Both the position numbers and the translations under genes were made by a program. Below the pieces are notes generated by a model. That model made no database searches, had not been told where the DNA came from, and saw only the letters and a list, made by a program, of their open reading frames with translations. 32,722 nucleotides of DNA from Gammaproteobacteria bacterium (lineage in GTDB: Bacteria > Pseudomonadota > Gammaproteobacteria > Pseudomonadales > Azotimanducaceae): positions 1 to 32,722 of the forward strand of contig VYFT01000027.1 of NCBI GenBank assembly GCA_009842245.1, read 5' to 3'. The first letter of the stretch is position 1, and every line of letters begins with the position of its first letter. Of the stretch, positions 1-23,547 are shown in pieces.

Positions 1-47
1 GTATACAGGAGATGTAGTCAACAAATCAAATTCGTTCAAATAAATCT

Positions 48-1853
48 ATGATAACTACAAGCGAAAACACAGCAACCGGTCTCAAACTCGTTCTTGGAAT
101 CGGGCTAACGTTCATCGCAGGACTGACTCTTGGGGTATTCGCGGTTATTGCGATCCAAAACCTAATTCCACAAAGTGAGCACACGTCTCAAGATGTTGTT
201 CAAAGAGGTGTCAGCGAATCCTCGACTACAAGAGCTGACAGTGGTGCTACAGCTGATTCGCGTGAAATTTGGCTAATTCAGGACATCTTAAATCAACCGA
301 GCGCATTTGATCAACAAAGAGCACTGTACGCTACCCTTTCGTCGGCAACGGCGAAAGATTTGAAAGACTTGTGGATTCAATCTCAATCAATTGAGAGAGA
401 GAGTCATCGTGAAACGGTACAACACGGAATTCTCAGCAAGCTTGCTACCATAAGCCCAGTTGAAGTACTCGAGTTCATTGACGAAGTATCAATTTTTCAA
501 ACGGACGCGTTGTTAACGAGTCTGTTCAGCGAGTGGTCGATCTCACATTTAGAAGACGCAATTGAAGCCGCCGCCAAGCTTGTGGGTACACAACGGAATG
601 TCGCTCTCGAAGCAATCCTTGAAACCCGCGATGACCTATCCGAAGAAAGACGTCGCGCGATCGCGGTACAACTCGACAAGGAAGAGACATATTTAAAGAG
701 GGTCAGTGACACGAAAGCAATAATGAGCCTCACGGAACCACTGCGTTCATGGGACACGTTAGTCACCGACGAAGTAGAAGACTATCTGCAGATAGAGTCT
801 CTCATAAAAGTCGCTGAGGCGTGGCGCGAACAGATTGGTTTTGAGGTGCTCTCCAACATCTACCGTACAGACATGGAGGACAACCAACTCAAACAACAAT
901 TAATTCGTACGATTGTCGAAGTGGATCTACCAGGAGCGTTGGACTATACCCGCGGGCTAACCGACGAGAGCGAAAAATTTAGTTTGTCGAGGACCATAGT
1001 TCGTGCATGGGCTCGATCGGATGCACTAGCCGCCCTTTTAGCAGTCTCAACATTTGAACCCACTTCTATTGCGTCCGAGTTAAAGGTTCAAATCGCTATG
1101 GTTTGGGGAAGTACGAAGCCTAATGAAGCGATAGAAAATATTGAAGCGTTGTCGGATCAGTATAGGCTTAATACGCTTGAGTCAGCATTTGCACAACTTG
1201 CATCTCAGGACCCTAAGAACGCTCTCGCTAGAGTGAGTTCTGTCGAGAATCTAGTAGCGAATACTTCGTCGATAATACTCAGTGTTGTACGCGCATGGTC
1301 TTATGACCAACCTAGAGACGCGACTGATTGGGTGTTAGAAAACTATGCGCGAGAAGACCCGCAACGTCTAAGGTTGTTGCGAAGTGTTTTACGGCAGTTG
1401 GCTCCCGTTGAGCCAGAAGCCGCGTTTGAAATTGCGTTAGAACACTCCACTGGGGGAAGATTGGGTGGATTTGAACTGGACGTGTTAGTTTGGATCACAT
1501 ATTCCGGAAATCTAGCACTAGCGAAAGAACTAATTCCACGAGTACACGAAGATTCCATATCTTTTGCCTACGTACACGTTGGAGGGGAAATGGTAAAGAA
1601 ATCTCAAGCGGATGACGCGTTGGAATTGGGAAGAGATTTGAACGAAACACAGCAGTCAGAATACCACTACGGACTTATGCGTATTTGGGCAAGAGAGAAT
1701 CCTAAGAACCTATACGAGAAGCTTGACAAATTACCTACAGACGATCTCAAGTCATTTGCTGCAGAGCAGCTGATAAGCAGCAACACTCGTCCCCCGTATT
1801 TAAGCGATGATCAGATCAATCATGCCCAAACATTTGTAAAGTCCGATGACTAG
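48..1853 (+). CDS. SOL1: membrane-anchored periplasmic alpha-solenoid protein (unnamed family)
   Basis: This 601-residue protein is the first of seven tandem paralogues. Residues about 13-37 form one hydrophobic helix with a GLTLG (GxxxG) motif, preceded by a short polar tail, so it is probably a signal anchor with the rest in the periplasm. Residues about 40-75 are a variable Ser/Thr/Asp-rich linker. Residues about 104-129 carry the family motif LKxxWxQSxxIERxSHR, and residues 193-209 carry RDDLS followed by RRxIAxQL. From about 130 to the end I count roughly a dozen helical-hairpin units of about 35 residues with the pattern W-x3-DP-x2-A (for example AWARSDALAAL and LASQDPKNAL), as in TPR/HEAT-like solenoids. 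The last unit is LSDDQINHAQTFV. There is no cysteine. The ATG has no well-placed Shine-Dalgarno sequence; AGGAG at 7-11 is too far away. The molecular function is unknown; a scaffold or binding role is inferred. Confidence 0.85.
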   Translation: MITTSENTATGLKLVLGIGLTFIAGLTLGVFAVIAIQNLIPQSEHTSQDVVQRGVSESSTTRADSGATADSREIWLIQDILNQPSAFDQQRALYATLSSATAKDLKDLWIQSQSIERESHRETVQHGILSKLATISPVEVLEFIDEVSIFQTDALLTSLFSEWSISHLEDAIEAAAKLVGTQRNVALEAILETRDDLSEERRRAIAVQLDKEETYLKRVSDTKAIMSLTEPLRSWDTLVTDEVEDYLQIESLIKVAEAWREQIGFEVLSNIYRTDMEDNQLKQQLIRTIVEVDLPGALDYTRGLTDESEKFSLSRTIVRAWARSDALAALLAVSTFEPTSIASELKVQIAMVWGSTKPNEAIENIEALSDQYRLNTLESAFAQLASQDPKNALARVSSVENLVANTSSIILSVVRAWSYDQPRDATDWVLENYAREDPQRLRLLRSVLRQLAPVEPEAAFEIALEHSTGGRLGGFELDVLVWITYSGNLALAKELIPRVHEDSISFAYVHVGGEMVKKSQADDALELGRDLNETQQSEYHYGLMRIWARENPKNLYEKLDKLPTDDLKSFAAEQLISSNTRPPYLSDDQINHAQTFVKSDD

Positions 1854-1970
1854 GGAAACGACAACCGACTTTGAAGAAATTATGAAATTTTCCCTGACAG
1901 CGATACCAAGATATGCGTTTCCACTTTCAGACGAAGTACCGTACATTAAGAAGCCAAACTGAGTTGCAAT

Positions 1971-3776
1971 ATGACAGACACTAGCAGTAAATCTAAAACA
2001 GGTCTAAAGCATATTGTTGTTTTTGGAGTTACTTTCACCGTAGGTGTGACTTTGGGAGCTCTCGGTGTTATTTCATTCCAAAACTTCGAATCTCAAAATG
2101 AGACCCCGACCGAAGGCGGTGCGCAGATTGAAGAGCGACCAATTTCGACTGAGATCTCTGACTTCGGTTCAAGTGCTAGGCCAAGGGACTCTGGACCAAT
2201 ACAAGAAGTCTTAAACCAACCAAGTATTTTTGATCAGCAAACAGCAATCTTCGATTCTCTTGCATCTGCAACTGAACAAGAGTTGAAGGAGTTGTGGATT
2301 CGATCTCAAGAAATAGAGAGGCAGAGTCATCGTAAGACCGTACAGCATGCCATACTCCGAAAGTTGGCGACGACAAATCCACATGACGCGCTTCAACTCC
2401 TCGACGGTGTTTCCATATTTGAGATGGATTCGATGGTGGGGAGTTTGTTTAGTGAGTGGTCGATCTCACAGTTAGACGAAGCAATCGAGGCCGCCAATAC
2501 TCTATCATGGGAACGCCGGAAAATTGCTGTTGAAGCTATTCTGAAAACCCGAGACGATCTGACAGAAAAAAGACGCCACGATATTGCCATACAACTCGAA
2601 GAAGAAGAAATATTTATTAAGTTGACTAGTGATTCGAAGGCGTTAGAAAACATCGAGGACCCCAAGAAGTCATGGGACACATTGCTTAATGACGAGGTAG
2701 AAGACTACCAGCAAAGAGAGTCTCTTGTAAAAGTAGCTGAGGTGTGGTGGAAACAAATTGGTTTTGAGGTACTCTCGAAGATTTACAGCGCGGACATTGA
2801 GGACTACCAGCTTAAGCATCAATTATTGCGTAAGGTTGCCGAAATCGATCTACCGCTCGCTTTGGACTACACGCGCGATCTAACAAACGAGAGAGAAAAA
2901 TCAAATCTGTCAAGGATCATTGTGCGTATCTGGGCTCGATTGGATGCACAAGCCGCCCTGTTAGCAATCTCAAGTTTTGAACCCGCTTCTTTGGCTTCAA
3001 TTCTCGAAGATGAAGTATCAAGGATTTGGGCGAGTACCAGACCGATCGAGGTGATTGAGAATATTGAAGTGATTCCGGAAGAACTTCGAATAGATACTTT
3101 AGAGTCAGCGTTTGCACGGATTGCGGCGCAGGATCCGTTGGATGCTCTTGCTAAAGTAAGTTTAGTCGAGAAGTTGATTGATAACACTTCTTCGATCATA
3201 GATTCGATCGTGCGCGAATGGTCTCATAAAGAACCTAGAGACGCGACTGAGTGGGTTTTAGAAAACTATACCCCAGAAGACCCCCAGCACCGTTTATTGT
3301 TATTACACGCGTTACCGCGCTTAGCTCGCGTAGAACCCAACAAAGCATTTGAACTTGCGATTGAACACACTACTGACGGGTTTTTAGTACGATTAGATAC
3401 TGAGGTCGTTGGAGAAATATTAGACTCAGGCAATTTAGAACTCGTTAAGGAACTAATTCCTCGAGTACCCGATGCTTCTAAGTTTCGAATTTACTTAACA
3501 GTCTCTCGAGTCATGATCAGACAGGGACAAACAGAAGAGTCGTTAGAACTCGGAAAGGACTTAGTCGGAGAGCAAAAGAGAGCCTACTATGAGGGACTCA
3601 TGCGTAATTGGTCTAGATCTGATCCCAAAGATCTTTACGAGTCCCTCGACGACTTACCGACAAGCGATCTGAAGTCTCTCGCGGCAGCGCAATTGATCAG
3701 TAGCAACAAATACACTCCCCAATTGACCGATGATCAGATCGAACACGCAAAAACTTACGTGACAACTGACGACTAG
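1971..3776 (+). CDS. SOL2: membrane-anchored periplasmic alpha-solenoid protein
   Basis: This 601-residue paralogue begins 117 bases after SOL1. By eye it is the closest relative of SOL1: same length, the same LNQPSxFDQQ segment after the linker, and the same ending in LTDDQIEHAK plus a short acidic tail. The membrane helix is at about residues 12-36 with GVTLG as its GxxxG. The WIRSQEIERQSHR and RDDLT motifs are present, followed by the W/DP repeat units (for example IWARLDAQAAL, IAAQDPLDAL, NWSRSDPKDLY). No cysteine is present. No convincing Shine-Dalgarno sequence precedes the ATG, and I see no terminator between SOL1 and SOL2, so read-through from SOL1 is possible. Function is unknown; the location is inferred to be the inner membrane with a periplasmic solenoid. 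Confidence 0.85.
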   Translation: MTDTSSKSKTGLKHIVVFGVTFTVGVTLGALGVISFQNFESQNETPTEGGAQIEERPISTEISDFGSSARPRDSGPIQEVLNQPSIFDQQTAIFDSLASATEQELKELWIRSQEIERQSHRKTVQHAILRKLATTNPHDALQLLDGVSIFEMDSMVGSLFSEWSISQLDEAIEAANTLSWERRKIAVEAILKTRDDLTEKRRHDIAIQLEEEEIFIKLTSDSKALENIEDPKKSWDTLLNDEVEDYQQRESLVKVAEVWWKQIGFEVLSKIYSADIEDYQLKHQLLRKVAEIDLPLALDYTRDLTNEREKSNLSRIIVRIWARLDAQAALLAISSFEPASLASILEDEVSRIWASTRPIEVIENIEVIPEELRIDTLESAFARIAAQDPLDALAKVSLVEKLIDNTSSIIDSIVREWSHKEPRDATEWVLENYTPEDPQHRLLLLHALPRLARVEPNKAFELAIEHTTDGFLVRLDTEVVGEILDSGNLELVKELIPRVPDASKFRIYLTVSRVMIRQGQTEESLELGKDLVGEQKRAYYEGLMRNWSRSDPKDLYESLDDLPTSDLKSLAAAQLISSNKYTPQLTDDQIEHAKTYVTTDD

Positions 3777-3827
3777 TAAGCTTAACAGAAATCGTAAGTC
3801 GTTTTTAGGAACCATGTAAACTCGTTA

Positions 3828-3833
3828 TATAAT
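3828..3833 (+). promoter_or_regulatory. Candidate -10 box upstream of SOL3
   Basis: TATAATC lies 26 bases before the ATG of SOL3, and the same heptamer lies at the corresponding place before SOL4 (6008). Around it, the two upstream regions otherwise agree only at the GGAGTAGC ribosome-binding stretch. The -35 side is poor (TTAGGA at 3805-3810, 17 bases away). It is a perfect consensus hexamer in a plausible place, but it is not proven to be a promoter. Confidence 0.35.
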
Positions 3834-3859
3834 CGAAAAGATTACTTTGGAGTAGCAAC

Positions 3860-5686
3860 ATGGCAAGGACTAGCGGGCAACCTTCGGTCGGTCCCAACAG
3901 CCGTCGTCTGATGGGGATTTCATTCACAGCAGGACTAACACTGGGAGTGCTGGCCGTTATCGCAATCCAGATCTTATGGCCTCAAACAGAGCTCTCATCA
4001 CAAGACAGTGCTCAAGACATAGGTCAACAGTACGATACTAACGAAAGTTCAACCACGGGTACGGTTGTAACCGAGAAATTTGAAGATGTCTTTAGACATC
4101 AGAGGATTTTTGATCAAAACAAAGCGCTTCACGATATGCTATCAGAAGCTTCAGAAACCGAGCTGAAAGATTGGTGGGGTCAATCCCAAAAAATTGAAAG
4201 AAAGAGTCAGCGCGAAATAGTGCAGGACGCTATACTTCGGAAACTAGTTGGGGTGAATCCCCAGGAAGCACTACGGTACGTTGATGGCGCATCAAAATTT
4301 AGGGTTGACACTCTACTGCACAGTGTATTTTCCGAATGGGCAGTCGCAAATTTAGACGAAGCTATCGAAGCTGCTACTACCCTATCAGGTTCGCGACGTG
4401 TTGCTGCTCTTCAAGCGATGCTTGAGTTTCGCGACGATCTGTCCGAAAACGAACTTCGTCAGATCGCTCAACAGCTCGAGGGGGAAGAAATCTTTTTCAA
4501 ATACGTCAGTGACACGAAAGCCTCGCAAAACATAGCAAACCCGCAAGAATCGTGGGAAATTTTGCTCGGTGACAACGTCGACGATTATCTGCAGACCGAG
4601 TCCCTCACGATCGTCGCTAAAGCCTGGCGCGAACAAATTGGGTTTGAAGTCCTTTCGAAAATCTACAACACGGAAACCGAGTACTTTCGAGCCAAGCTAG
4701 AATGGGTAAGTGCAGTGGCTCAGGCCGATATTGCTGGTGCTCTGGAGTACGCACGGGGAGTATCTGATGAGCAAGAAAAGCGGTATTTGTCGACCGTTGT
4801 TGCGCGTGAATGGGCTAGAACGGACGCGCTTGCTGCACTTACAGCTGTCTCGACTATAGAGCCATCCTCCTTAGCTTCAGAAATTGAAACTGCGGTCGCA
4901 TACGTTTGGGCAACAACCAATCCTCGCGAACTGATCACAAATATCGCCGTAATACCGGAAGAAGCAAGACTCTTGCCTTTAGAGTCTGCGTTTTCAAGAA
5001 TAGCGATGCAAGATCCAGCGGAAGCAATCGCACAACTGAGTTCAGTGGAAGACTACGTCGGAAATACTTCGACCATAGTTAGAAGAATTGTTATGCAATG
5101 GTCTTATCAAGAGCCTGCAGAAGCGGCGAACTGGGTTGTTAACAACTTTGAGGAAGACGATCCACAACGTCGAACATTGTTGCAGAACGTTTTACCACGT
5201 TTAGCTAATATAGATCCAAACCAAGCTTTTGAACTGGCGATTGCACAACCGGCACCCAGCTCAGGCTTCGGTCTAGAAATTTATGTGATTTATGAAGTAG
5301 CGGGCGACGGGGACATTGAACTTGCTCAGAAGTTTCTACCACGAGTGTCAGAAAATACCCAAACAATAGCCTACTCTGAAGTGGGATCCGCAATGGTACG
5401 GAATTTACAGATAAATGAGGCTATCGAACTTGGAAATGACTTAGAAGGACGCAATCAGACTATATACTACGGGCGAGTCTTCTCGGCGTGGGCGAGTGAT
5501 TCTCCCAAGAACCTATACGAGTCGCTTGAAAACTTTCCAACGAGTGAGCTCAAATCGACCGCGGCAAGGCAACTCATCACGCAGAACCAGTACGAACCCG
5601 TTTTGAACGATGAACAGATTGAGCGTGCAAGAACATTTTTGAACTCAGATGACGAGAATTTCTTAAAACGTATTGAAAGCAGATAA
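3860..5686 (+). CDS. SOL3: membrane-anchored periplasmic alpha-solenoid protein
   Basis: This 608-residue paralogue has the cleanest translation start of the array: GGAG at 3849-3852, a 7-base spacer, then ATG at 3860. The tail NSRR precedes a membrane helix (about residues 18-40) with GLTLG, supporting a cytoplasmic N-terminus by the positive-inside rule. The linker is followed by the KFEDVF/RIFDQN segment, WWGQSQKIERKSQR, RDDLS, and the repeat units (EWARTDALAAL, IAMQDPAEAI, QWSYQEPAEAA, LANIDPNQAF). The protein ends in LNDEQIERARTFL plus a short charged tail that SOL1 and SOL2 lack. It has no cysteine. A TATAAT box upstream suggests its own promoter. It begins 83 bases after SOL2. Function is unknown. 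Confidence 0.87.
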   Translation: MARTSGQPSVGPNSRRLMGISFTAGLTLGVLAVIAIQILWPQTELSSQDSAQDIGQQYDTNESSTTGTVVTEKFEDVFRHQRIFDQNKALHDMLSEASETELKDWWGQSQKIERKSQREIVQDAILRKLVGVNPQEALRYVDGASKFRVDTLLHSVFSEWAVANLDEAIEAATTLSGSRRVAALQAMLEFRDDLSENELRQIAQQLEGEEIFFKYVSDTKASQNIANPQESWEILLGDNVDDYLQTESLTIVAKAWREQIGFEVLSKIYNTETEYFRAKLEWVSAVAQADIAGALEYARGVSDEQEKRYLSTVVAREWARTDALAALTAVSTIEPSSLASEIETAVAYVWATTNPRELITNIAVIPEEARLLPLESAFSRIAMQDPAEAIAQLSSVEDYVGNTSTIVRRIVMQWSYQEPAEAANWVVNNFEEDDPQRRTLLQNVLPRLANIDPNQAFELAIAQPAPSSGFGLEIYVIYEVAGDGDIELAQKFLPRVSENTQTIAYSEVGSAMVRNLQINEAIELGNDLEGRNQTIYYGRVFSAWASDSPKNLYESLENFPTSELKSTAARQLITQNQYEPVLNDEQIERARTFLNSDDENFLKRIESR

Positions 5687-6049
5687 GTCCATACTACGGA
5701 ATTGATCCTCGTTTTTCGTTTGTCTAAAAACTAGTTCTGTGAGAACCTACACACTACCTGACTAACTTCAATCCCACCGGAACGTTCGGCTTCTAACTCG
5801 TCAGACTCCGAAAAATCGCTCAGATTCGTGGATGGAATAACACTAATACACGATTGCCTTCGTTACCGTAGTTGATGCTAAAGTTCGTTTATTCGCGATT
5901 GCAAGGCCATATTTCCCAATTAATCAGAGTAAAGTCCAAACACATGTAGTCTCAGGTCGATCTGTGTATCGGTTGACAACGGTCAATTAGGTGCAACATA
6001 CAGACCATATAATCAAAGAAGAATTTAAAGGAGTAGCCACTGAGCGACA
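5687..6049 (+). other. Non-coding gap SOL3-SOL4 with possible promoter
   Basis: This 363-base gap has no convincing ORF and is the longest spacer in the array. TTGACA, a perfect -35 hexamer, lies at 5973-5978, but the nearest good -10 (TATAAT, 6008-6013) is 29 bases away, so they do not pair as a classical sigma-70 promoter. A weak CATACA lies at 5997-6002. I see no strong terminator hairpin. Confidence 0.4.
6008..6013 (+). promoter_or_regulatory. Candidate -10 box upstream of SOL4
   Basis: TATAATC occurs here 16 bases before the GGAG of SOL4, matching the box at 3828 upstream of SOL3. The conserved placement relative to the ribosome binding site in two paralogues is the main support. No matched -35 is seen at 16-18 bases. 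Confidence 0.35.
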
Positions 6050-7876
6050 ATGAGCGCGCAACCTTCGACAAAGTTCAAACAAATTTCTTTAGTTGGAATC
6101 TCATTAGGGAGTGGGCTGGTATTGGGGATGCTGGCAGTTGTTGCGATCCAAAATTTCAATCCTCCAAATAATCGTACAGACTATGATTTCATACAAAGCG
6201 ATCTCCAACAAGACTCGATCAAAAACGGCGACTACGATTCATCCGATAATCCAGTTGTAGTTGAAAAATTTGAAGGAATTTTCAAACAACGTAGCACTGC
6301 CGAACAATACAAAGTACTATACAACACCCTCTCCCAGAGCAATGAACAAGAACTGAAGGAGTGGTGGAAGCAATCTAAAAATGTTGAAAGAGCGAGTCAT
6401 CGCAACATTGCACAGCACGTCATTCTTCACAATCTGACCGCGATAAATCCGCAACAAGCTCTACGGTACGTCGATGAAGTATCAATCTTTCAATCGAATG
6501 CACTTTTGACGACCGTTTTCAGCGAGTGGGCAGTTTCACATTTAGAGGATGCTGTAAAAGCTGCTGCCAGTCTTGTGGACTCGCGACGCATCGTCGCACT
6601 GCAAGCCATTCTTGAATCCCGCGACGACCTGTCCGCCAGTGAACTTCGTTCGATTGCGATGGAACTTGAGGGCGAAGAAATTCTCCTCAAGTTAACCAGT
6701 GATCAACTGGCGGCCCAAAGTATCGAGGAACCCGCGAAATCTTGGAACATTATGCTCGATGACGACGTAGACAACTCGCTCCAAAAAGAGTCGTTTGCGA
6801 AAATTGCCGAGGCGTGGCGTGAGAAGGATGGATTTGCAGTGCTTTCGCACATTTACACTGACCTTCCCAATATGAGATTTGAGCTAGTGCGCGCAATCGC
6901 CCGAGTTGATCTTGCTGGTGCTTTAGACTTCACTCGTACCATACTCGACGAAAACGAACAAAAGTACATAGCAATGGTCATTGTGAACGAATGGACGAGA
7001 ACAGATGCTCAAGCGGCATTGGCAGCTGCATTGACATATACGCCCGCCTCTATGGCGTCATATCTTGAAAATTCAGTCGCCTCAACATGGTCGTATACGA
7101 ACCCGAATGAATTGATCGAAAATATCGGATCGATTTCGGAGGAGTTACGATTAGGTAAGTTGGAGTCCGCGTTTTGGCAAATTGCCCGCAAAAATCCAAT
7201 GGAAGCAATTGCAAAAGTGAACTCTGTAGAAAGCTATGTTGGTAACACTTCTTCTATACTAGACACTATAGTATTTCAATGGTCTTACCAAGAACCCGCG
7301 GTTGCAGCTGAATGGGTTATCAAAAACTTTGCTAAAGATGACCCGCAGCGGCATGACCTGTTGGAGAACATAATGCCCCGCTGGGCACGACAGGATCCAG
7401 TACAAGCCTTCGAATTGGCGATAGCTCAACCCGCTCGTAGTGAGGGTATTGAGTTGGATTACTGGGTTATTGATGAAATAACCTCAGATGGTGATGTAGA
7501 ATTGGCTAAGAAGCTTTTACCTCGAGTAAAAGAAAAAACTAGACTACACGCTTATATCAAAGTCGGAGCAGCGATGATAGCCGAGTCGCAGACGGAAGAG
7601 GCTTTGGAACTTGGAAAAGACTTCGAAGACGATCAAAGACGTCAGTATTATCAACGAGTTTTGAACGACTTGGCTAGAAATAACCCTAAAAACCTGTTTG
7701 AGACTCTGGAAAGTCTTCCGTCAAGTAGTGTCCAGTCCCTTGCTGCAATACAGCTAGTGAGAGTTAATCGATATCAACCTCTGTTGACTGACGAGCAAAT
7801 TGAACGAGTCAGAGTTTATATAAACCCCGAAGACGAAGCTTCAGATGGAAGCTCAGGAATTCTCTTTGGAAACTAA
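6050..7876 (+). CDS. SOL4: membrane-anchored solenoid protein with displaced start codon
   Basis: This 608-residue paralogue has a membrane helix at about residues 13-35 (GLVLG as GxxxG) preceded by KFK. The usual motifs follow: KFEGIF, WWKQSKNVERASHR, RDDLS, then W/DP repeats (EWTRTDAQAAL, IARKNPMEAI, QWSYQEPAVAA, WARQDPVQAF), and LTDEQIERVRVYI near the end with an acidic/Gly/Ser tail. It has no cysteine. The start is odd. Aligned base for base with SOL3, GGAGTAGC at 6030-6037 is conserved, but the codon where SOL3 has ATG is TGA (6041-6043). The first ATG is three codons later at 6050, leaving 16 bases between GGAG and the start. Translation may therefore be weak. Function is unknown. Confidence 0.83.
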   Translation: MSAQPSTKFKQISLVGISLGSGLVLGMLAVVAIQNFNPPNNRTDYDFIQSDLQQDSIKNGDYDSSDNPVVVEKFEGIFKQRSTAEQYKVLYNTLSQSNEQELKEWWKQSKNVERASHRNIAQHVILHNLTAINPQQALRYVDEVSIFQSNALLTTVFSEWAVSHLEDAVKAAASLVDSRRIVALQAILESRDDLSASELRSIAMELEGEEILLKLTSDQLAAQSIEEPAKSWNIMLDDDVDNSLQKESFAKIAEAWREKDGFAVLSHIYTDLPNMRFELVRAIARVDLAGALDFTRTILDENEQKYIAMVIVNEWTRTDAQAALAAALTYTPASMASYLENSVASTWSYTNPNELIENIGSISEELRLGKLESAFWQIARKNPMEAIAKVNSVESYVGNTSSILDTIVFQWSYQEPAVAAEWVIKNFAKDDPQRHDLLENIMPRWARQDPVQAFELAIAQPARSEGIELDYWVIDEITSDGDVELAKKLLPRVKEKTRLHAYIKVGAAMIAESQTEEALELGKDFEDDQRRQYYQRVLNDLARNNPKNLFETLESLPSSSVQSLAAIQLVRVNRYQPLLTDEQIERVRVYINPEDEASDGSSGILFGN

Positions 7877-7942
7877 CAGAGAATTTACCATGTGTCTTCA
7901 GAAAAAATATTGTCGTCTGGTGACATAGATTCAACAGAAAAA

Positions 7943-9787
7943 ATGTCTGTAGTGTCCAAAAACAGTCTTGTGCTTGCCGGTATATTCGCTGCTGGTCTTG
8001 CAGTAGGAATACTTGCGGTTGTCTCAATCCAAAACGTTGGTAAACGAAACGAGCATCTGACCCAAGATGTTGCTCGAGTCGATGTCGTGCAAACTTCTAC
8101 GGAGCGTGCCGACAATCGATCTTCAAAAAGCACACACATTGCCGGGCAATTCGAAGAAATCTTCAAACAACGTAGTACGGCTGAACAATACAAAGCACTA
8201 TACAACACCCTCTCCCGAACCAACGAACAGGAATTGAAAGAGTGGTGGAACCAGTCTAATAAGATTGAGCGCACTAGTCACCGGGAAATCGCGCAACAAG
8301 TCATACTCCGATATCTGAGCAAGATAGATCCTGAAGCAGCTCTTCAATACCTAAGTGAAGTCACGTTCCACCAAACGGATGCATTGTCAAGGACAATTTT
8401 TAGTGAGTGGGCGGTTTTAGACCTAGACGAAGCAATCAAAGCTGCCTCAAAACTTTTGGGTGCGCGACGAAGCGTAGCACTTGAATCAATCCTTGAAACC
8501 CGTGATGACCTATCTGAAGATAGACGTCTTGCGATTGCGGTGCAGCTCAATCGAATAGATACTTTCGATAAATTGAATAGCGAAATGAAAGCGCTTCACA
8601 GCATTGCAGACCCTAGTACATCGTGGGACATTTTGCTCAATGACAATGTTGATGATTCTCTACAGATTGGAGCTTTAGCACTAGTCGCGGAGCAGTGGCA
8701 GGGACAAATTGGTTTTGAAGTACTCTCGAAAATCTACCATTCTGGATTTGAAGACTTCGAAATCAAGAGATTGCTATTAGAGGCGATCGCGCAAGTGGAT
8801 CCAGCTCAGGCGTTGGAATTTGCCCGAGAGGTGTCCGATGAGAACGAACAGTCTTTTCTATCCGGCATAATTGTTGAGGAATGGGCTTCGACAGACCCAC
8901 TTGCAGCACTCGCTGCTGTTTCATCGTTTAAACCGGCCTCTCTATATTTTGATCTCGAAGAAGAAATCGGGGTAGTTTGGGCTAAGAATAAACCCTATGA
9001 ATTTATCCAGAGTATAGAACTAATGTCGGAGGGGTCTAGAGTGTGGCCGTTGGAGGTGGCTTTCGCGTACCTCACTCGTGAAGACCCACTAGGGGCAATC
9101 GAGTCACTTAGTTCTATGAAAGACTATGTTGGAAATACGACTACGATTCTACATCGAATTATTGAACAATGGGGCATGCTACAGCCTGAAGTTGCGACAA
9201 ATTGGATATTAAATGACTTTGACCAAGAGGACCCGTATCTTCGTTACTCGTTACTGGAGGAGACACTCCCCTCTCTGGCTCTCCAAGATCCACAAAAGGC
9301 ATTTGAAATCGCGCTAGAACAACCCACTCCAGACCACGGATTAGCATTCGGGTTAGATTTTAGGGTCATCTCGGAATTAGCGTGGCACGGCCGCGTCGAA
9401 CAAGCGATCGACCTTCTACCTCGAGCGCGTGAAAGTTCTAAAGCTTCTGCTTATGAGAGTGTTGGTAAGGCGTTGGTAGACAAAGGACAGGGACTAGACG
9501 CATTGGAACTGGGAAGCGATCTAAAGCCAAACCAACAACAGCGGTACTATCGTAGCATTATTCAAAGGTGGGCATGGGCCGATCCAACTGAGCTGTACGA
9601 GGCACTTGAAGATTTACCATCCAGTGATGCTCAGTCGTTGCAGTCGATTGCGGCATCAGAGCTACTCACCAGGCGGTTCAGTCGCCATCAAGTTTTAACT
9701 GATGAGCAGCTCGAACGAGCAAGATCCTTCCTTAACGACAACGATAGAAAGCGGGTGCAATTGATTGAAAGGCTCGAAAATCAATAG
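7943..9787 (+). CDS. SOL5: membrane-anchored periplasmic alpha-solenoid protein
   Basis: I choose the ATG at 7943 (614 residues). The frame opens earlier, with a GTG at 7892 that would add 17 residues, but from 7943 the N-terminus aligns codon for codon with SOL7 (MSxxSKxxLVxAG) and places the membrane helix (GLAVG as GxxxG) at about residues 9-31, as in the paralogues. Motifs KFE-like QFEEIF, WWNQSNKIERTSHR and RDDLS are present. Repeats include EWASTDPLAAL, LTREDPLGAI and LALQDPQKAF. The end is LTDEQLERARSFL plus a basic tail. It has no cysteine. A 55-base stretch near the linker is almost identical to SOL4. The start has only an A-rich leader, no clear Shine-Dalgarno. The gap to SOL4 is 66 bases. 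Confidence 0.83.
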   Translation: MSVVSKNSLVLAGIFAAGLAVGILAVVSIQNVGKRNEHLTQDVARVDVVQTSTERADNRSSKSTHIAGQFEEIFKQRSTAEQYKALYNTLSRTNEQELKEWWNQSNKIERTSHREIAQQVILRYLSKIDPEAALQYLSEVTFHQTDALSRTIFSEWAVLDLDEAIKAASKLLGARRSVALESILETRDDLSEDRRLAIAVQLNRIDTFDKLNSEMKALHSIADPSTSWDILLNDNVDDSLQIGALALVAEQWQGQIGFEVLSKIYHSGFEDFEIKRLLLEAIAQVDPAQALEFAREVSDENEQSFLSGIIVEEWASTDPLAALAAVSSFKPASLYFDLEEEIGVVWAKNKPYEFIQSIELMSEGSRVWPLEVAFAYLTREDPLGAIESLSSMKDYVGNTTTILHRIIEQWGMLQPEVATNWILNDFDQEDPYLRYSLLEETLPSLALQDPQKAFEIALEQPTPDHGLAFGLDFRVISELAWHGRVEQAIDLLPRARESSKASAYESVGKALVDKGQGLDALELGSDLKPNQQQRYYRSIIQRWAWADPTELYEALEDLPSSDAQSLQSIAASELLTRRFSRHQVLTDEQLERARSFLNDNDRKRVQLIERLENQ

Positions 9788-9940
9788 GAAATTCACCAGA
9801 AAATTTGAACGAACCGTTTGATCAGATAGGATCTTGGCGGAGGTTAGTGAAAAATCACCGATTTAAATGAACACAAATTCGAGACGTGAGCTATTTAAGG
9901 CAAAACAAACGTTGATCTAATAACAACTGGGAGAAGTTCA

Positions 9941-9943
9941 ATA
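9941..9943 (+). promoter_or_regulatory. ATA in the start-codon position of SOL6
   Basis: GGGAG at 9929-9933 is followed by a 7-base spacer and then ATA, in frame with SOL6. SOL3 has the same GGAG, 7-base spacing and ATG. The encoded residues after ATA (NLNRKYVIGITF) align with the N-terminus of SOL3 (NSRRLMGISF). This suggests that an original ATG mutated to ATA while the ribosome binding site stayed. Confidence 0.5.
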
Positions 9944-9961
9944 AATTTAAACCGCAAATAC

Positions 9962-11776
9962 GTGATCGGTATCACTTTCTTAGCCGGTCTAATGCTAGGG
10001 ATACTTGCCGTCTTCGTGGTGCAATACTTCGTTCCTCAAAAAGAACCTACGACCCACGGCATTGGTCAAAGTAACGTCGAGCGAACTGAGACAGAGAGTG
10101 CTCACAATCTACCATCAATGACCACGGTCGGCGTTGGTAAATTCGAACAGATCTTCGATGACCCTAGTCCCACTGAACAGTACCAAGCACTATACAACAC
10201 ACTCTCCCAAAATAATGAAAAGGAATTGAAGCGGTGGTGGATTCAGTCTCAGAAAATTGAGCGCGCTAGTCATCGAGAAATTGCGCAACACGTCATTCTC
10301 CAAAGTCTGACCGCAATAAATCCTCAAGAAGCTCTTCGGGCTCTAGACGATGCCTTGATGCTTGAAAGGGATGCTCTGTCAAGGACAATATTTAGCGAGT
10401 GGGCGTATTTGGACTTAGACGAAGCAATCTCCAGTGCCGCAAAACTTGCGGGAACTCAAAGAAGCGTCGCGGCCGAAGCAATCCTTAAATCCCGCGATGA
10501 TCTGTCTGCGGATAAACGTCGAGCGATCGCGGTGCAGTTAAAGCGGGAAGAAACTTACCTTAAACTGATTAGTGATGAGGAGGCATTTCAAAGTACTACA
10601 GATCCTGGTGAGTCATGGAACATTCTTCTCAATGACGATGTCGATGATTTACGACAGATGGGAACTCTAGCAATAGTCGCTGACGCGTGGCGGGAACAAA
10701 TTGGTTTTGAAATACTTTCGAAAATATACCATTCTGAATTTAAAGACTACCGGATCAAATGGAAGCTCGCGGCGACGATCGCACAAGGGGACCCAGCTCT
10801 TGCGTTCGAATATGCCCAAGGGGTGTCTGAGGAGAACGAACAGTCTTATTTGTCCGAGATAGTTGTTGAGGAATGGGCGCGTACAGACCCACAAGCCGCG
10901 CTAGCTGCTGCTTCAACCTTTGAAGCTTCCTCCGTAGTTGCTCATCTTGAAGAAGAAATCGCAGAGGTTTGGGCTAGAACTGAACCTTATGAATTGATCG
11001 GAAACATAGAACTTGTAGCGCAGGAGTCACGTGTTTCGCCATTGATATTAGCGTTTTCGCGCATCTCGCGTGAAGAACCACTAAGGGCAATTGAATCACT
11101 TAGTACCGTAGAAGACTCTGTTGGAAGTACGTCTCCAATCCTCCAACGAATTGTAAATGAATGGAGTCAACAACAACCGGAAGCCGCTACAGATTGGGTG
11201 TTAGATAACGTTGACCAAGAGGACCAACCCCTTCTTCAATCTCTACTGAAGGAAGTGCTGCCCTCTCTAGCTCGCCAAGATCCAAAAAAAGCCTTTGAAA
11301 TCGCGTTAAAACAACCTGTTCCCGACTTCAGCGAAGGGTTAGAGCTTCGGGTTATATCTCAATTAACCCAAGACGGCAATATCGAACTAGCGCTTAGCCT
11401 CCTACCTCGAGTGCGTGAAAAAAATACTCAAGAGTACGCTTACCACAATATTGCGTCAGCCATGGTAAAAAAAGGACGAACATTGGAAGCTTTGGAACTG
11501 GGACGTGATCTAGAACCACGACTGCAAGAATCTTACTATGGTAGAGTCGTTCAGACGTGGGCAAATACCGATCCCACAGGCCTTTACGCCTCACTTGAAG
11601 ATTTACCGACCAGTGCTACTCAAACAGATGCCGTATCTGCTCTCTTTCTTAGCAACGATGTCAGTCCAGTTTTAACTGATGATCAACTCGAACAAGCAAA
11701 ATCACTCTTAGACCCCGATGACGCAGCCCGAATACAAACTGGTACGGTGAAAGTCAATCGAAGTATTCCCTGTTAG
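9962..11776 (+). CDS. SOL6: membrane-anchored solenoid protein with eroded start codon
   Basis: This paralogue has 604 residues if counted from the GTG at 9962, the only canonical start. From there the protein would begin directly in the membrane helix (GLMLG as GxxxG) without the usual polar and basic tail. The frame is open back to 9899 and encodes family-like residues NLNRK just upstream, so the ancestral start was probably at 9941, now ATA. Motifs KFEQIF, WWIQSQKIERASHR and RDDLS are intact, as are the repeats (EWARTDPQAAL, ISREEPLRAI, LARQDPKKAF, TWANTDPTGLY). The end LTDDQLEQAKSLL is followed by a longer tail finishing in a single Cys, the only cysteine in SOL1-SOL7. The gap to SOL5 is about 155-175 bases. 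The gene may be poorly expressed; function is unknown. Confidence 0.75.
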   Translation: MIGITFLAGLMLGILAVFVVQYFVPQKEPTTHGIGQSNVERTETESAHNLPSMTTVGVGKFEQIFDDPSPTEQYQALYNTLSQNNEKELKRWWIQSQKIERASHREIAQHVILQSLTAINPQEALRALDDALMLERDALSRTIFSEWAYLDLDEAISSAAKLAGTQRSVAAEAILKSRDDLSADKRRAIAVQLKREETYLKLISDEEAFQSTTDPGESWNILLNDDVDDLRQMGTLAIVADAWREQIGFEILSKIYHSEFKDYRIKWKLAATIAQGDPALAFEYAQGVSEENEQSYLSEIVVEEWARTDPQAALAAASTFEASSVVAHLEEEIAEVWARTEPYELIGNIELVAQESRVSPLILAFSRISREEPLRAIESLSTVEDSVGSTSPILQRIVNEWSQQQPEAATDWVLDNVDQEDQPLLQSLLKEVLPSLARQDPKKAFEIALKQPVPDFSEGLELRVISQLTQDGNIELALSLLPRVREKNTQEYAYHNIASAMVKKGRTLEALELGRDLEPRLQESYYGRVVQTWANTDPTGLYASLEDLPTSATQTDAVSALFLSNDVSPVLTDDQLEQAKSLLDPDDAARIQTGTVKVNRSIPC

Positions 11777-11977
11777 CAATACTCTTTGAAAATATAATTA
11801 TTCATATACATCAACGTGTTGAAACTTTTGATTCAACCAAAGTATCATGATTTGCATCGTCGCCAGACAATAGCGATTTCACTTTGACAGCTACTATTTC
11901 CAACACTGTTTTCTGTCCTTAAAAATTGATTCAAGGGTAGCATAGAACCAATTTCACAACTTTGGCAAAAAAGAAAA

Positions 11978-13168
11978 ATGGCTAGTATGTCAAAACGCAT
12001 TCTTGTGATTGCAGGTACATTCGTGACTGGTCTTGCAGTAGGAATTCTCGCTGTTTTAGCATTCCAAAGCATACGTCCGCACGAGGAACATTCTTCACAA
12101 GACATTGCTCATGGTGAATTCGAGCAAACTTCGCCAAAGAGAAACAACAGTTCGTTATCGACAAGCACGGTTGGTGTTGGGAAATTCGAAGATATCTTCA
12201 AACACAAGAGTATCGTTGAACAATACAGCGTCCTTCAGGCCACCCTGTCGCACGCTACCGAGCCGGAATTAAAGCGGTGGTGGACTGAATCTAAGAAAAT
12301 AGCTCGGGACAGTCACCGCAAGATCGCACAACACGTGATTCTCCGATATCTGACGGCGAAAGATCCACACGAAGCTTTTCGGCTCATCGACGAAGTGTCA
12401 ATATTTCAAACCGAAGCAGCATTGACGACAGTTTTTAGCGAGTGGGCAGTGCTACACTTGGAAGGCGCGATCGAAGCTGCCGCCACGATGGTGAGTTCGC
12501 AGCGAAGAGTCGCCCTTGAAGCCATTCTCGAAACCCGCGACGATCTACCTGAAAACAGTCTTCGATCGATTGCGAGACAACTTGATAGTGAAGACACGTT
12601 TCTCAAAATGGTTAGTGAAGTAGAGGTGTCCAAGAGCATAGACGATCCAAAGGAGTCATGGGAAATTTTGCTCAATGACGATGTCGACGATGCTCTTCAA
12701 ATGGAAACGCTCGTGTTCGTCGCTACAGTTTGGTATGAACAAATTGGATTCGAAGTACTCTCGAAAATTTACTCAGAGATCGAGGACTACACAAGTCAAC
12801 GACAATTGTTGAGAGTCATTGCCCAGAAGGATCCAATTGGTGCATTGGACTATACCCGCGGGTTAACTGCCGACTACGATAAATTGAATTTATCCACAAT
12901 AATTGTTCGTGATTGGGCGAAAACTGATGCACAAGCTGCATTGGACGCGATCTCAACAATCGAGTCCTCTTCTTTCTCTTCAACACTTGAAGATGTAGTC
13001 GTGACAACTTGGGCGCGAACTACTCCGACCAAAGTGATTGAAAATATCGAATCGATATCGGAACATCACCGATTGTCTACTTTGGAAACAGCATTCGCAA
13101 CTCTCGCACGCGAGGACCCTATGAACGCTCTCACCAAGCTGAGCTTTAGAGATGAGTACATCTATTAA
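11978..13168 (+). CDS. SOL7: 3'-truncated solenoid paralogue
   Basis: The frame encodes 396 residues against about 600 in its neighbours. The start ATG, basic tail (SKR), membrane helix with GLAVG, linker, KFEDIF, WWTESKKIARDSHR and RDDLP motifs are all normal. The repeats run as far as LAREDPMNALTKLS. Homology then stops at about 13144 and seven unrelated codons lead to TAA. About 200 residues, the last five or so repeats, are missing. The sequence beyond 13144 is the antisense of the 3' end of the converging TPR gene, so this is a rearrangement junction rather than a simple nonsense mutation. It could still make a shorter membrane-anchored protein, but I regard it as a probable pseudogene. 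It has no cysteine and a weak ribosome binding site. Confidence 0.75.
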   Translation: MASMSKRILVIAGTFVTGLAVGILAVLAFQSIRPHEEHSSQDIAHGEFEQTSPKRNNSSLSTSTVGVGKFEDIFKHKSIVEQYSVLQATLSHATEPELKRWWTESKKIARDSHRKIAQHVILRYLTAKDPHEAFRLIDEVSIFQTEAALTTVFSEWAVLHLEGAIEAAATMVSSQRRVALEAILETRDDLPENSLRSIARQLDSEDTFLKMVSEVEVSKSIDDPKESWEILLNDDVDDALQMETLVFVATVWYEQIGFEVLSKIYSEIEDYTSQRQLLRVIAQKDPIGALDYTRGLTADYDKLNLSTIIVRDWAKTDAQAALDAISTIESSSFSSTLEDVVVTTWARTTPTKVIENIESISEHHRLSTLETAFATLAREDPMNALTKLSFRDEYIY

Positions 13169-16100
13169 TGTCGGTAAACTTTTGTCTTCAGGATTCACAT
13201 TTGGTCTTCCACTTCTCGCTGCTCGTCCTCGCGCCCCGTATTGATCGTACGTAATCTCACGCGACAAAAGCCCTTCACTAGGCCATTGAAGTAAGACGGG
13301 TTGAATGTTGCCTACTCTGTAGTTGCTACTTGAGGTTTTGCCAAGCGTAGTGGCATGCGATCCTCGCCAAACTGTTCGTAGTAGTTGTGCGGTTTCCTCT
13401 TGATTGGTCTGTTCACTCGAAACGACGGTCTGCAACCGAGTCATCATCGACTTTAAGTCGTCCGGGAGAATGTCATCGACCACATATCGTGTTCCAAACT
13501 CGTTCCTATTGAGGATCAATTTGAGAAAGAACGAAGGAGAGTATTGACCGTGGACCCGTACAGCATCATTACGCGCGATAATGCCTTCACGTACTTCGTT
13601 GTCCAAGAGATTCGGCCCTCCGTCCAAAGCAATTGCTAATGCTTGATCAAAGTTTCCGTTCTCAATGGCTATTAAGAAATATGACAACCGAATGAACTCT
13701 TCGCTTTTGTCGATTTCGTACAAGTTACGAAGGAAATAGACTAATTTTTCTAAGTCATCACTTTCAATGTAGTCACTGATTAATCGTACCAGCAAATGCT
13801 CGTTATCTGGAAATTTCTTAACGAGTGTCTCTTGAAGAAATGAGTACTCTGCACTGTCTATCATGTCTGCGTCAAAGTACCTCGAACTGTTTAAAATCGC
13901 AACGCCGAAGTCTACGTCGCTTATAGTGCCGTCTCTAATCTGTTGGATGGAATGCTCATATTGCTCTTTGAAAGGGGTATATATCAGATTTCGAACATAC
14001 ATTCCAAAGTAGAGGTTATTACTCGAGACGTCAATTAGTGTTCGGTATGCTGATTCCGTGTTTCCGGAATAAAAGTCGCGTAACAGAGAGACTTCTGACT
14101 CTGAAATTCCCGAAAGATCTTGCACATCCTCCACAAATTGAAAGAACAAATCGAGATTGGATTGATGTACCTCAAAGTTGAAAATCATCGGATCACAAAA
14201 ACTGCGAGCTTGCTTATCTTGCAAGTTCACTTTGCTCAGCAGAGTAGACGTTGCCTCGTCTACGCGTCTCAGAAGCTTTTTGTTGAGCGGAACACTTAGA
14301 ACTTTTCGGTGGAGTGAAAATAGATCAATTGTCAGTAATGAAATTCCCGATGGTCTGAGATTGTTGACGATGCGTTCGAAAAGAGCGACTAAGTTGTCTA
14401 CATCGCCCTTTTGCATAAAGTAATACTGCAAACTAGGGATGCTGCGATAATACGTTCCGAGAACTTTTTGAACATCTGCGTTGCGCCAAAAGTCGTCGTC
14501 GAATTCAGATAGTCTTCTACTGATTTGGTCTTCAATTTCGACCACAAGCGTAGGGTCGTTGATAAGAAGTTCGATCAGGTCGCTCGGTGATTCTCGAAAC
14601 GACGAGATAACGGTATTTAGTAGCCCTGAATACTCCCTTTCGTTCAGCACGTTGGATGCGTAGTGCAAAGTCGCGCGTAGATCTCCTTCGTCCAAGTATT
14701 GGTGAAAAAACGAATAAAGAGATTCCGTTGGTTCGACAATAGTACCAAGACGTGTGACTCTTTCGATGTTTTGCAGCTCGACGGCACTGTCAAACGCGAA
14801 TTCGACAAGTGTCTTATCTTCTGGGATCCCACTGAACTTTAAATCTTTGACATTCTCGACCAAAGCAGGTTTAGGTTCGATCCCGTTGTCCCAGAAGTGT
14901 AGTCGTAGAGTTTCAGCGAAACGCTCATCATTTCCAAAGTGAGATGCGAGGGCGAAGTCGATCTGTTCCGCAATTTCCGCTCTATTGACTGCGACAAACA
15001 ATCGACGTAAAGTTCGCGCGATGTAGTCGAGGCGTGAGAATCGAGACAACGAGAGATCACTTTCATTGTCGTCTCCTATAGCGTTCATTCTCTGATTTGC
15101 AAGATTGATGACCTTGGTGAACTCTTCGTCAAACAATTTGACAAACAGATCGGTCCTTGCCTGTGCGTTCTCTTCCTCATCAGGCCAAGTCGTGAGCAAA
15201 CCTTGCATTAGAACTTCATAGTAAGTGGTGAAAGTCTGTGGTAAGATAGCAGTGTTACTTGAGGCTTGGAGTTGTGTTTCGTGCAACTCAGTCGGTAGCG
15301 ATTGGATCAACTTAGTCAAGGCACTTGCGTACAACACGTTCGCGATGTCAAAGTGTCCATTTACCTCACGAAGTATCGCGGTTTTAGCGTTAAGTTCTAT
15401 ATCGTCTCGATTAACAGCCAAGGCTTGACTATACGCTGTAAGCGCGTGTCCGCTGTAAGCCTCAGCCATAAACAGGTCCCCTTTAGTCTTGGTCACATTC
15501 ATCAATCCTGTGATGTCTCGAACCAGAGCTAGCGACATTTCCGCTCCAAGTGTATCCCCTTGTGCCAGCAAAGTTCGTGCAATATTGACGTACACATCGG
15601 GAGGTAGCTGCTGGCGTAGACCGATTAGACGTCTCCCATAAATCAATTGACGATCAACATCTTTCACTTTTCGTAAATTCGAAAAACCAGCAATCGGAGT
15701 CGCCATAGTCACTATCTCGCGCAACACAGCTAATCTTCGAATACCAGCTTGGGACACCGAATTCTCTAAAGCTACAAATCCACCTTCATGATCGTTAGTC
15801 TCTAAAGCAATATCAGATAACAAACGATACAGGTAGAACTTATCATCCTGCTTAGTGAGCCGTTCCAATATAACTCGATGAGCCCATCGAAAAACCGCTT
15901 CGTTCTCAGTTGGTAACCTGTGGACGAACGAATGTTGCCCGACCATGTTGATGATACCGTCGATTGCTACGACAAATTCGTTGTCATCTCTAGCGTGCTC
16001 TGCCACGTATTGAAGAAGAGTCACAGCTTCTTCTGTTAAGTTGTTCTGCTTCATCAAATCAGCCATGAGTAGAAGATTGTCGCTGTGATCAGGTTGATCG

Positions 16101-19074: not shown

Positions 19075-19266
19075 CATTCTTCAATTAAACTTGTACATCT
19101 TCTTGGAGTGAGTCATCCATAACTTTCTCCATAAATTTTTTACGACTTTACCTGCGGCTTAGACCGTATTGTCTGAGTCTATGAATATGACAAAGGGAGG
19201 CTTGAATTCAAATCTTATTACTGAGCGACCTTCTTCTATTAACTGATCGGGATGAGGAGAGTGTCA

Positions 19267-23513: not shown

Positions 23514-23547
23514 CAGCGCAATTGTTTAGACGGTGGGAGATTTACGA

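What the first reader, a model, noticed from the sequence alone, without database searches (positions are those of the whole stretch)
48..13168. Seven tandem membrane-anchored solenoid paralogues: a possibly undescribed family expansion
Seven same-strand genes of about 600 codons share one architecture: membrane helix, variable linker, a WWxQSxxIERxSHR block, an RDDL(S/T/P) block and about a dozen W/DP repeat units. Strong conservation of the Trp and DP-x2-A positions across diverged copies argues for selection on the fold. I know of no named system with this layout. Tandem diversification of a periplasmic solenoid suggests variation in what is bound.
Basis: partly seen in the sequence, partly recalled or inferred. 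Interest (0 to 1): 0.75.

Follow-up and report, generated by a model that had tools for sequence, protein, structure and literature searches.

The report
Huge family of membrane-anchored solenoid proteins
A probably animal-associated bacterium carries about fifty very different copies (relatives up to about a hundred) of an unnamed membrane-anchored, spring-shaped binding protein that the standard family libraries searched do not recognise; most of its copies outside this window's array sit next to a copy of another type, and they probably catch many different molecules just outside the inner membrane.

Summary
The array is real but is the tip of a much larger expansion. The window holds six full copies, a seventh cut short at a breakpoint, and a diverged eighth on the other strand. 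This genome has about 51 family genes (50 counted in full: 3.5% of the assembly, no two 60% identical). Six named relatives have 59-116 matches in 2.5-3.4 Mb. Ten of 18 genomes of the genus are expanded; the other eight have 0-7 matches. No Pfam or NCBIfam model reached its cut-off in five window copies, and PADLOC and PHROGs gave nothing for three. AlphaFold predicts an all-helical solenoid behind a membrane helix and disordered linker, also for a copy 23% identical. All 114 copies examined are acidic; 84 lack cysteine. The fold is kept (dN/dS about 0.25), yet amino acids change 6-14 times faster, relative to silent change, than in core genes. Outside the array 36 of 43 copies here adjoin a copy of another subclade; partner trees mirror each other (r 0.94) in two of three pair types, suggesting a two-solenoid unit. 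Thioredoxin-fold proteins, and in relatives conjugation-type genes, lie nearby. Best guess: periplasmic capture proteins diversified for host- or rival-derived ligands. Fold class known; family apparently undescribed; ligands untested.

The parts
48..1853 (+). SOL1, full-length membrane-anchored solenoid, 601 aa
   Evidence: family profile E 3.3e-282; orthologue G007:C1:120301
1971..3776 (+). SOL2, full-length copy, 601 aa
   Evidence: orthologue G007:C1:118368
3860..5686 (+). SOL3, full-length copy, 608 aa; AlphaFold model m00f90d3291fb, pLDDT 87.2; no clear orthologue in G007
3902..3976 (+). SOL3 N-terminal membrane helix (residues 15-39)
   Evidence: model secondary structure; hydropathy
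3977..4072 (+). SOL3 disordered variable linker (residues 40-71)
   Evidence: pLDDT below 50 to residue 69; highest column entropy, mean 3.40 against 2.63 in helices
4073..5680 (+). SOL3 all-helical solenoid (residues 72-607)
   Evidence: same architecture in a copy 23% identical
4430..4444 (+). SOL3 RDDLS block (residues 191-195)
6050..7876 (+). SOL4, full-length copy, 608 aa; 93% identical to its G007 orthologue (pS 0.10)
7892..9787 (+). SOL5, full-length copy, 631 aa
9962..11776 (+). SOL6, full-length copy, 604 aa
11978..13168 (+). SOL7, 3'-truncated copy, 396 aa; family homology ends at about 13131-13162
   Evidence: full-length orthologue G007:C1:101959
25162..27018 (-). SOL8, diverged full-length copy, 618 aa; N-terminal hydrophobic stretch ends LCSC (lipobox-like, not matched by the strict pattern)
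   Evidence: orthologue G007:C1:18051, 84.5% identical
12980..18193 (-). neighbour: TPR-rich protein, convergent with and overlapping the cut end of SOL7
   Evidence: TPR_19 41.9 bits over cut-off 25
19252..20511 (+). neighbour: thioredoxin-ankyrin fusion
20543..22996 (+). neighbour: FGE-sulfatase domain fused to an AhpC/TSA thioredoxin-fold domain; member of the co-expanded cluster
23959..25125 (+). neighbour: AhpC/TSA thioredoxin-fold protein, same cluster (N-terminal part apparently in a separate ORF at 23533-23877)
27377..29026 (+). neighbour: AhpC/TSA thioredoxin-fold protein, same cluster

Best explanation
These are inner-membrane-anchored periplasmic capture proteins. Predicted from sequence: one N-terminal membrane helix, a disordered tether, then a Cys-poor, acidic all-helical solenoid without an obvious catalytic site (judged by eye; RDDL and a few other polar residues are conserved). 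By the positive-inside rule (recalled, applied by eye) the solenoid faces the periplasm. Inferred: like other alpha-solenoids it binds polypeptides along its surface, and tandem duplication plus fast amino-acid change on a conserved fold has made each copy bind something different. Outside the window's array the working unit is probably two different solenoids encoded side by side. The ligands are most likely polypeptides that reach the periplasm from the animal host or from rivals, such as cationic defence peptides or proteases, which the acidic solenoids would hold away from the inner membrane, beside the alpha-2-macroglobulins and thioredoxin-fold proteins encoded nearby. The ligand step is a guess.
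For: Topology and make-up: 111 of 114 copies have an N-terminal membrane helix by hydropathy; pI beyond residue 75 is 4.2-5.6 in 114 of 114; 84 have no Cys there and 21 have one. Net charge -6.4 per 100 aa against -2.0 for 24 core-region ORFs and -3.2 for 126 other island ORFs. Fold. Conserved columns are mainly Trp, Ala, Leu and Pro plus RDDL; the linker varies most. Fast change under constraint: median family dN/dS 0.23-0.30 (4-20 reciprocal best pairs per genome pair) against core 0.018-0.044 (12-22 genes) in all six genome pairs. No recent copies: 0 of 1224 within-genome pairs reach 60% identity. Pairs: 38 of 39 neighbour contacts outside the SOL clade join different classes, label shuffles 0 of 2000; 36 of 43 such copies of this genome have a neighbour of another class; mirror trees r 0.94 for two of three pair types, and r 0.95 with six units of this genome alone (12 of 720 permutations as high). 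Company: 33-member thioredoxin-fold cluster, alpha-2-macroglobulin. Lineage bias: 10 of 18 genus genomes expanded.
Against: No ligand, expression or localisation data. The hosts of the isolates are recalled, not given by a tool (searches found none), and those of the low-copy genomes are unknown, so the animal link is weak. Low pI is shared by the neighbouring thioredoxin-fold proteins (-8.3 per 100 aa), so it may be general to exported proteins here. One or a few copies of the same architecture occur in other families and one other order, so the ancestral role need not be host-facing. No block of 20 codons reached pN/pS of 1; the highest, 0.54, are at residues 41-80. The window's SOL1-7 array is not made of different-class pairs. 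Block duplication alone can give mirror trees; the third pair type gave r 0.49 (922 of 5000 as high). Pair order is fixed at isolated loci but ambiguous in alternating runs.
Confidence: 0.32

Rival explanations
1. Eukaryotic-like repeat effectors: solenoids that act on host cells (for example on uptake by phagocytes), as reported for ankyrin-repeat proteins of sponge symbionts.
For: Sponge MAGs are enriched in ankyrin, LRR, TPR and HEAT repeat proteins, and such proteins expressed in E. coli conferred evasion of phagocytosis (PMC8163846, passages). A conjugation-type cluster is found across the genus and is interleaved with solenoid genes in G011.
Against: The N-terminal membrane helix in 111 of 114 copies argues for retention. 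A few copies exist in other families and one other order. The conjugation-type genes are equally present in G005, which has no solenoid match.
Confidence: 0.2
2. Envelope housekeeping: scaffolds or chaperones for assembling envelope machines, amplified because there are many client machines.
For: Conserved architecture in 12 homologues from ten loci of low-copy genomes; neighbouring pairs suggest stable complexes; TPR-like periplasmic scaffolds are a known kind (recalled).
Against: 0-1 matches suffice in G005, G012 (77% complete) and G015; 50-116 clients are hard to name; amino acids change far faster than in core genes. No recurring neighbour around the outgroup copies (by eye).
Confidence: 0.2
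3. Poly-immunity or entry-exclusion array: each copy neutralises one variant toxin or one conjugation system of rival cells.
For: Tandem divergent paralogues, conjugation-type genes nearby in relatives, and low silent divergence of the window's array between species.
Against: Immunity proteins are usually small (recalled); no PADLOC match in three window copies and two neighbours; no toxin gene recognised beside them; old, species-shared gene order.
Confidence: 0.15
4. Binning artefact: contig C55 (the window) belongs to another species close to G007, so its low silent divergence has nothing to do with exchange.
For: C55 has no obvious core gene (by eye), and six of its copies have pS 0.10-0.43 against a core minimum of 0.46.
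Against: Within C55, SOL7 (pS 0.68) and SOL3 (about 0.7, no true orthologue) differ sharply from SOL4 (0.10). Copies on C35 and C54 also have pS 0.40-0.52. C35 starts where C55's neighbour is expected. C55 holds the only SOL1-7 clade array seen in this genome. The other 42 counted copies lie on other contigs of the bin.
Confidence: 0.07
5. Neutral or selfish growth: copies multiply and persist without benefit.
For: Very high copy numbers; some broken copies: SOL7 and split ORFs at G004:C28:10263-12129, G004:C45:14818-16820 and G013:C43:22559-24418.
Against: dN/dS 0.15-0.42 between orthologues, long-kept gene order, most copies with open frames of full length.
Confidence: 0.04

Closest known systems
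TPR / PPR alpha-solenoid repeats
   Same: Helix-pair repeats of about 31-36 residues (from helix spacing); the 50-sequence profile touches designed PPR proteins (best E 3.6e-10); three of 50 members touch TPR_19 at E<=0.01.
   Different: No TPR or PPR cut-off reached in five window copies; acidic, while RNA-binding PPR proteins are basic (recalled); Trp/DP signature; membrane anchor.
HEAT/ARM and karyopherin alpha-solenoids
   Same: Top Foldseek hits (karyopherin-beta2 E 1.7e-4, SF3b, transportin 3).
   Different: TM-score at most 0.30 among the 50 hits listed; generic solenoid resemblance only.
Eukaryotic-like repeat proteins of sponge symbionts (PMC8163846)
   Same: Repeat proteins multiplied in probable symbiont MAGs; lateral transfer reported there.
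   Different: That survey identified them with Pfam (passage), which does not see this family at cut-off in the copies scanned; here one family takes 3.5% of the assembly and is membrane-anchored.
Expansion of TTT solute-binding proteins in Rhodoplanes (434 genes in 8.2 Mb; PMC5994714, start of abstract in the search listing)
   Same: Lineage-specific explosion of one binding-protein family.
   Different: A known transporter family, not a solenoid (recalled).
PFGI-1 / TOL-type conjugative elements (TIGR03761, TIGR03754, TIGR03744)
   Same: In relatives the array lies beside such genes.
   Different: PFGI-1 relaxase model absent in 18 of 18 genomes; the genes are present whether or not solenoids are.

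Membership tests
TPR/PPR repeat family | Profile match over the curated cut-off | tested here: not met
   Five window copies: none over a cut-off; best TPR_19 18.2 bits against 25. The scan of 50 members lists E-values only: TPR_19 in 3, best 8.4e-5.
TPR/PPR repeat family | Helix-pair solenoid of about 34-residue units | tested here: met
   AlphaFold models; unit length judged from helix spacing.
HEAT/ARM karyopherin-like solenoid | Global structural match to a solved member | tested here: not met
   TM-score at most 0.30 among the 50 hits listed of 809.
Eukaryotic-like repeat proteins of symbionts | Repeat domain of a named eukaryotic-type Pfam class | tested here: not met
   (five window copies); one search gives sub-threshold-type E-values only
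Eukaryotic-like repeat proteins of symbionts | Enrichment in host-associated genomes | tested here: inconclusive
   10 of 18 genus genomes expanded, but no call gives the isolates' hosts.
Eukaryotic-like repeat proteins of symbionts | Action on host cells | not testable with these tools
   needs experiment
Cargo of a PFGI-1-type conjugative element | Element-typical genes beside the array | tested here: met
   In relatives: PFL_4669 of G013 161.6 bits (cut-off 110.7), TraD of G007 826 bits (cut-off 647.6); ParB of G013 136.5 bits, just under 143.8; positions. In this genome only by the inferred C55-C35 neighbourhood.
Cargo of a PFGI-1-type conjugative element | Relaxase of that class | tested here: not met
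   TIGR03760: 0 of 18 genomes.
Cargo of a PFGI-1-type conjugative element | Integrase and attachment sites | not tested
   not looked for
Cargo of a PFGI-1-type conjugative element | Element and cargo come and go together | tested here: not met
   G005 has the element genes and no solenoid match; most copies of G000 lie on other contigs.
Known anti-phage defence or phage protein family | PADLOC or PHROGs match | tested here: not met
   No match at E<=0.01 for SOL1, SOL3, SOL8; SOL3 without match in plasmids and phages; A1 without relative in viral contigs.

The most novel reading that the evidence does not exclude
A bacterial repertoire of paired receptors: two different membrane-anchored solenoids made from one two-gene unit form a heterodimer that recognises one polypeptide, and the unit has been copied and diverged many times, giving an animal symbiont a large recognition repertoire at its inner membrane, functionally comparable to the receptor repertoires of its host.
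Probability: 0.16. Interest if true: 0.88.

Novelty: new variant of a known kind. Interest (0 to 1): 0.66.

Why it matters
One protein family without a name in the libraries searched takes 3.5% of this genome and, by rough arithmetic from 116 matches of about 1.83 kb, about 8% of a relative's. A survey of repeat proteins in sponge symbionts that relied on Pfam (PMC8163846, passages) would probably miss it. The neighbouring pairs and mirror trees give a directly testable prediction (two-solenoid complexes), and the split of one genus into expanded and unexpanded species offers a natural comparison for what the family does.

Tried and rejected
RNA-binding PPR-like role: rejected because all 114 solenoids are acidic. 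Enzyme: disfavoured for lack of an obvious catalytic site (by eye). Phage, plasmid or viral origin: no match (SOL3; A1). Defence system: no PADLOC match. Tandem repeats in the window that could drive phase variation: none found. RNA families: none at gathering score. Promoter-like sites in 1-13500: fewer than in shuffles, 9 against a mean of 17.4. 'The array is simply conjugative-element cargo': weakened by the missing relaxase, by G005, and because most C35 genes have silent divergence like core genes while six copies of the window do not. I first read that low divergence as element transfer; pairs among G007, G013 and G004 show no such deficit, so exchange is proposed for G000 only, with mis-binning as a rival. 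The Mann-Whitney test used only family pairs over 50% identical, which biases it; I do not rest on it. Recurrence counts orthologous loci of different species, and so does, whose units I chose by eye (one of them, C9:65426 with C9:63407, is about 410 bp apart and outside the 400-bp rule); the G000-only check of one pair type is. One gene, C9:59215-61134, was cut by the edge of two fetched stretches and dropped from the 50 (a single open frame). Literature: ten searches showed no paper naming this family in the listings and passages seen; only PMC8163846, PMC8941161 and PMC8552685 were opened, by passages.
Full report
1. The observation. The window holds six full copies (601-631 codons) and a seventh of 396 codons on the + strand between 48 and 13168, and an eighth on the - strand at 25162-27018. 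All eight are related (56 of 56 ordered BLASTP comparisons significant, worst E 6e-36; 0 hits from shuffled copies in 20 x 8 trials). RDDL is in all eight. The W-block is literal in only some copies, and strict xP..A motifs number 3-6 per protein, not a dozen. SOL7 loses family homology at about 13131-13162, where a convergent TPR gene overlaps; its G007 orthologue is full length.

2. Scale. A profile of the eight copies gives 54 matches, some of them partial, in the 2.58 Mb genome, on 14 contigs; a broader profile gives 51. After removal of nested and short ORFs (under 390 aa) 50 genes remain, 90.6 kb or 3.5% of the assembly; one further gene was cut by the edge of my stretches. Median pairwise identity is 21%, maximum 59.3%; 0 of 1224 pairs reach 60%. 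Named MAGs have 116 (SB0661_bin_12), 99 (Plut_88873), 82 (SB0661_bin_9), 77 (SB0662_bin_2), 64 (CO36404bin_7) and 59 (COS2_bin_1) matches in 2.5-3.4 Mb (matches can be partial and were not all checked). In the genus 10 of 18 genomes have 38 or more matches, 6 have 1-7, 2 have none; three of the eight low ones are under 90% complete. In the family sample 28 of 100 genomes match, in the order sample 5 of 194, in the class sample 2 of 274, the own genome included each time; in these wide searches at most 13, 6 and 4 candidates per genome were scored. No call gives the isolates' hosts; from memory the names are those of sponge (SB, COS, CO) and Porites lutea coral (Plut) MAG series. Sponge symbionts of two Pseudomonadales families, HTCC2089 and Pseudohongiellaceae, are reported (PMC8941161, passages); I could not place this genus.

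3. What the protein is. No Pfam or NCBIfam model reaches its cut-off in the five window copies scanned; three of 50 members touch TPR_19 at E<=0.01. A PDB profile search touches designed PPR repeats (best E 3.6e-10). The AlphaFold model of SOL3 (pLDDT 87.2, pTM 0.71) has a membrane helix 15-39, a disordered linker and an all-helical solenoid 72-607. A copy 23% identical gives the same layout (pLDDT 85.6, pTM 0.66). Foldseek finds only generic solenoids, TM-score at most 0.30 among the 50 hits listed. Of 114 copies, 111 have an N-terminal membrane helix by hydropathy, all are acidic (pI 4.2-5.6), 84 have no Cys beyond residue 75. The lipobox count there (12) is unreliable because it includes Cys inside membrane helices. 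Twelve homologues from ten loci of low-copy genomes are also acidic (pI 4.4-5.6), 11 have no Cys and 11 an N-terminal helix.

4. History. In a tree of 114 proteins SOL1, 2, 4, 5, 6, 7 and 8 each group with a G007 orthologue, and the order of the array is kept: these paralogues are older than the species. A tree rooted on outgroups puts the sampled copies of expanded species in one clade apart from the three G009 copies; nine copies sampled from a second group of expanded species interleave with the others. So part of the expansion came before those species split, and the SOL1-7 clade grew later. Both are FastTree trees with many open forks.

5. Selection. Orthologue dN/dS is 0.15-0.42. In six genome pairs the family median is 0.23-0.30 (4-20 reciprocal best pairs, not all true orthologues) against 0.018-0.044 for the rpoBC region (12-22 genes). 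Core silent sites are near saturation in pairs with G000 but not among G007, G013 and G004, where the contrast holds. No block of 20 codons reaches pN/pS of 1 in 14 pooled orthologue pairs; the highest, 0.54, are at residues 41-80. Between G000 and G007, SOL1, 2, 4, 5, 6 and 8 have pS 0.10-0.43 against a core range of 0.46-0.81; other copies range from 0.40 to 0.79. This suggests exchange of the array between species, or a mis-binned contig.

6. Pairs. Of 66 co-directional family neighbours within 400 bp (median gap 84.5), 39 lie outside the SOL clade and 38 of these join different classes (37 at the loosest cut). Recurring pair types cover 26-31, never reached in 2000 label shuffles (maximum 10-20; orthologous loci count as recurrences). 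In this genome 36 of 43 copies outside the SOL clade have a neighbour of another class. Of 29 contacts in recurring types, 22 are in the majority order; the other seven lie inside alternating runs on C19, C20 and C9, and for the C19/C20 type the two orders are 4 and 4, so order is clear only at isolated loci. For two pair types partner trees mirror each other (r 0.94; 0 and 9 of 5000 permutations as high); a third with five units does not reach this (r 0.49, 922 of 5000). With six units of this genome alone r is 0.95 (12 of 720). Block duplication by itself gives mirror trees; that both partners are kept through deep divergence is what suggests a complex. The window's array is an exception.

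7. Surroundings. A 33-member single-linkage cluster of thioredoxin-fold (AhpC/TSA) proteins recurs beside the solenoids (five members scanned); three lie in the window. Relatives also carry large tandem ORFs, one of which was scanned and matches alpha-2-macroglobulin. The array lies beside PFL_4669 and ParB genes in G007, G013 and G004, with TraD farther along in G007 and G004. PFL_4669, TraD and TraC have matches in all 15 genomes of at least 90% completeness and at most 5% contamination (TraD only as a fragment in G013 and in two pieces in G002), with or without solenoids, and the PFGI-1 relaxase model finds nothing in 18. In this genome contig C35 begins with ParB, which in G007 lies 1.7 kb from SOL1, so C35 and the window are probably neighbours (inference).

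8. Verdict. The fold class is known; the family, its scale and its pairing are, as far as ten literature searches and the library scans above show, undescribed. Function is inferred: periplasmic capture of diverse polypeptides, probably from host or rivals. On re-checking I lowered the best explanation from 0.33 to 0.32 and the novel case from 0.17 to 0.16 because pair order proved ambiguous in alternating runs, and raised neutral growth from 0.03 to 0.04 because several copies are broken.

Noticed in passing
window 20543-22996, 23959-25125, 27377-29026; G007:C1 (13 members): A second co-expanded family: AhpC/TSA thioredoxin-fold proteins, some with a DUF4369-like N-terminal match under cut-off, one fused to an FGE-sulfatase domain; 33 members among 205 non-family ORFs.
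   Followed up: partly
G000:C35:2356-3516 and orthologues (L087:204-1364): ORF ending in DUF6573 (scanned in G007) beside PFL_4669 with pS about 0.10 against all four relatives compared while most of its neighbours have 0.44-0.77: unusually conserved at silent sites, unexplained; an inverted repeat of about 38 bp follows it.
   Followed up: partly
window 29274-29951 and 31410-32081 (-): Two paralogous small proteins, the first without Pfam match, possibly outer-membrane barrels (by eye); the second has dN 0.25 and dS 0.26 against its G007 match, a ratio near 1.
   Followed up: no
G000:C35:18003-42267, G011:C34:440785-460595, G007:C1:145577-163353: Three to four tandem ORFs of about 840-2000 aa; the one scanned (G007) matches alpha-2-macroglobulin domains.
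   Followed up: no
window 19252-20511: Thioredoxin-ankyrin fusion.
   Followed up: no
window 23533-23877 and 23959-25125: A thioredoxin-fold gene whose N-terminal part seems to lie in a separate upstream ORF; possibly a broken copy.
   Followed up: no
all 18 genomes of the genus (G000-G017): PFGI-1-type conjugation genes (TraD, TraC, PFL_4669) matched in all 15 genomes of high quality, without the PFGI-1 relaxase model: perhaps a retained secretion or transfer system.
   Followed up: partly
L171 (G009:C20): A large ORF that looks like a sulfatase (judged by eye, not scanned) between solenoid copies of a low-copy species.
   Followed up: no
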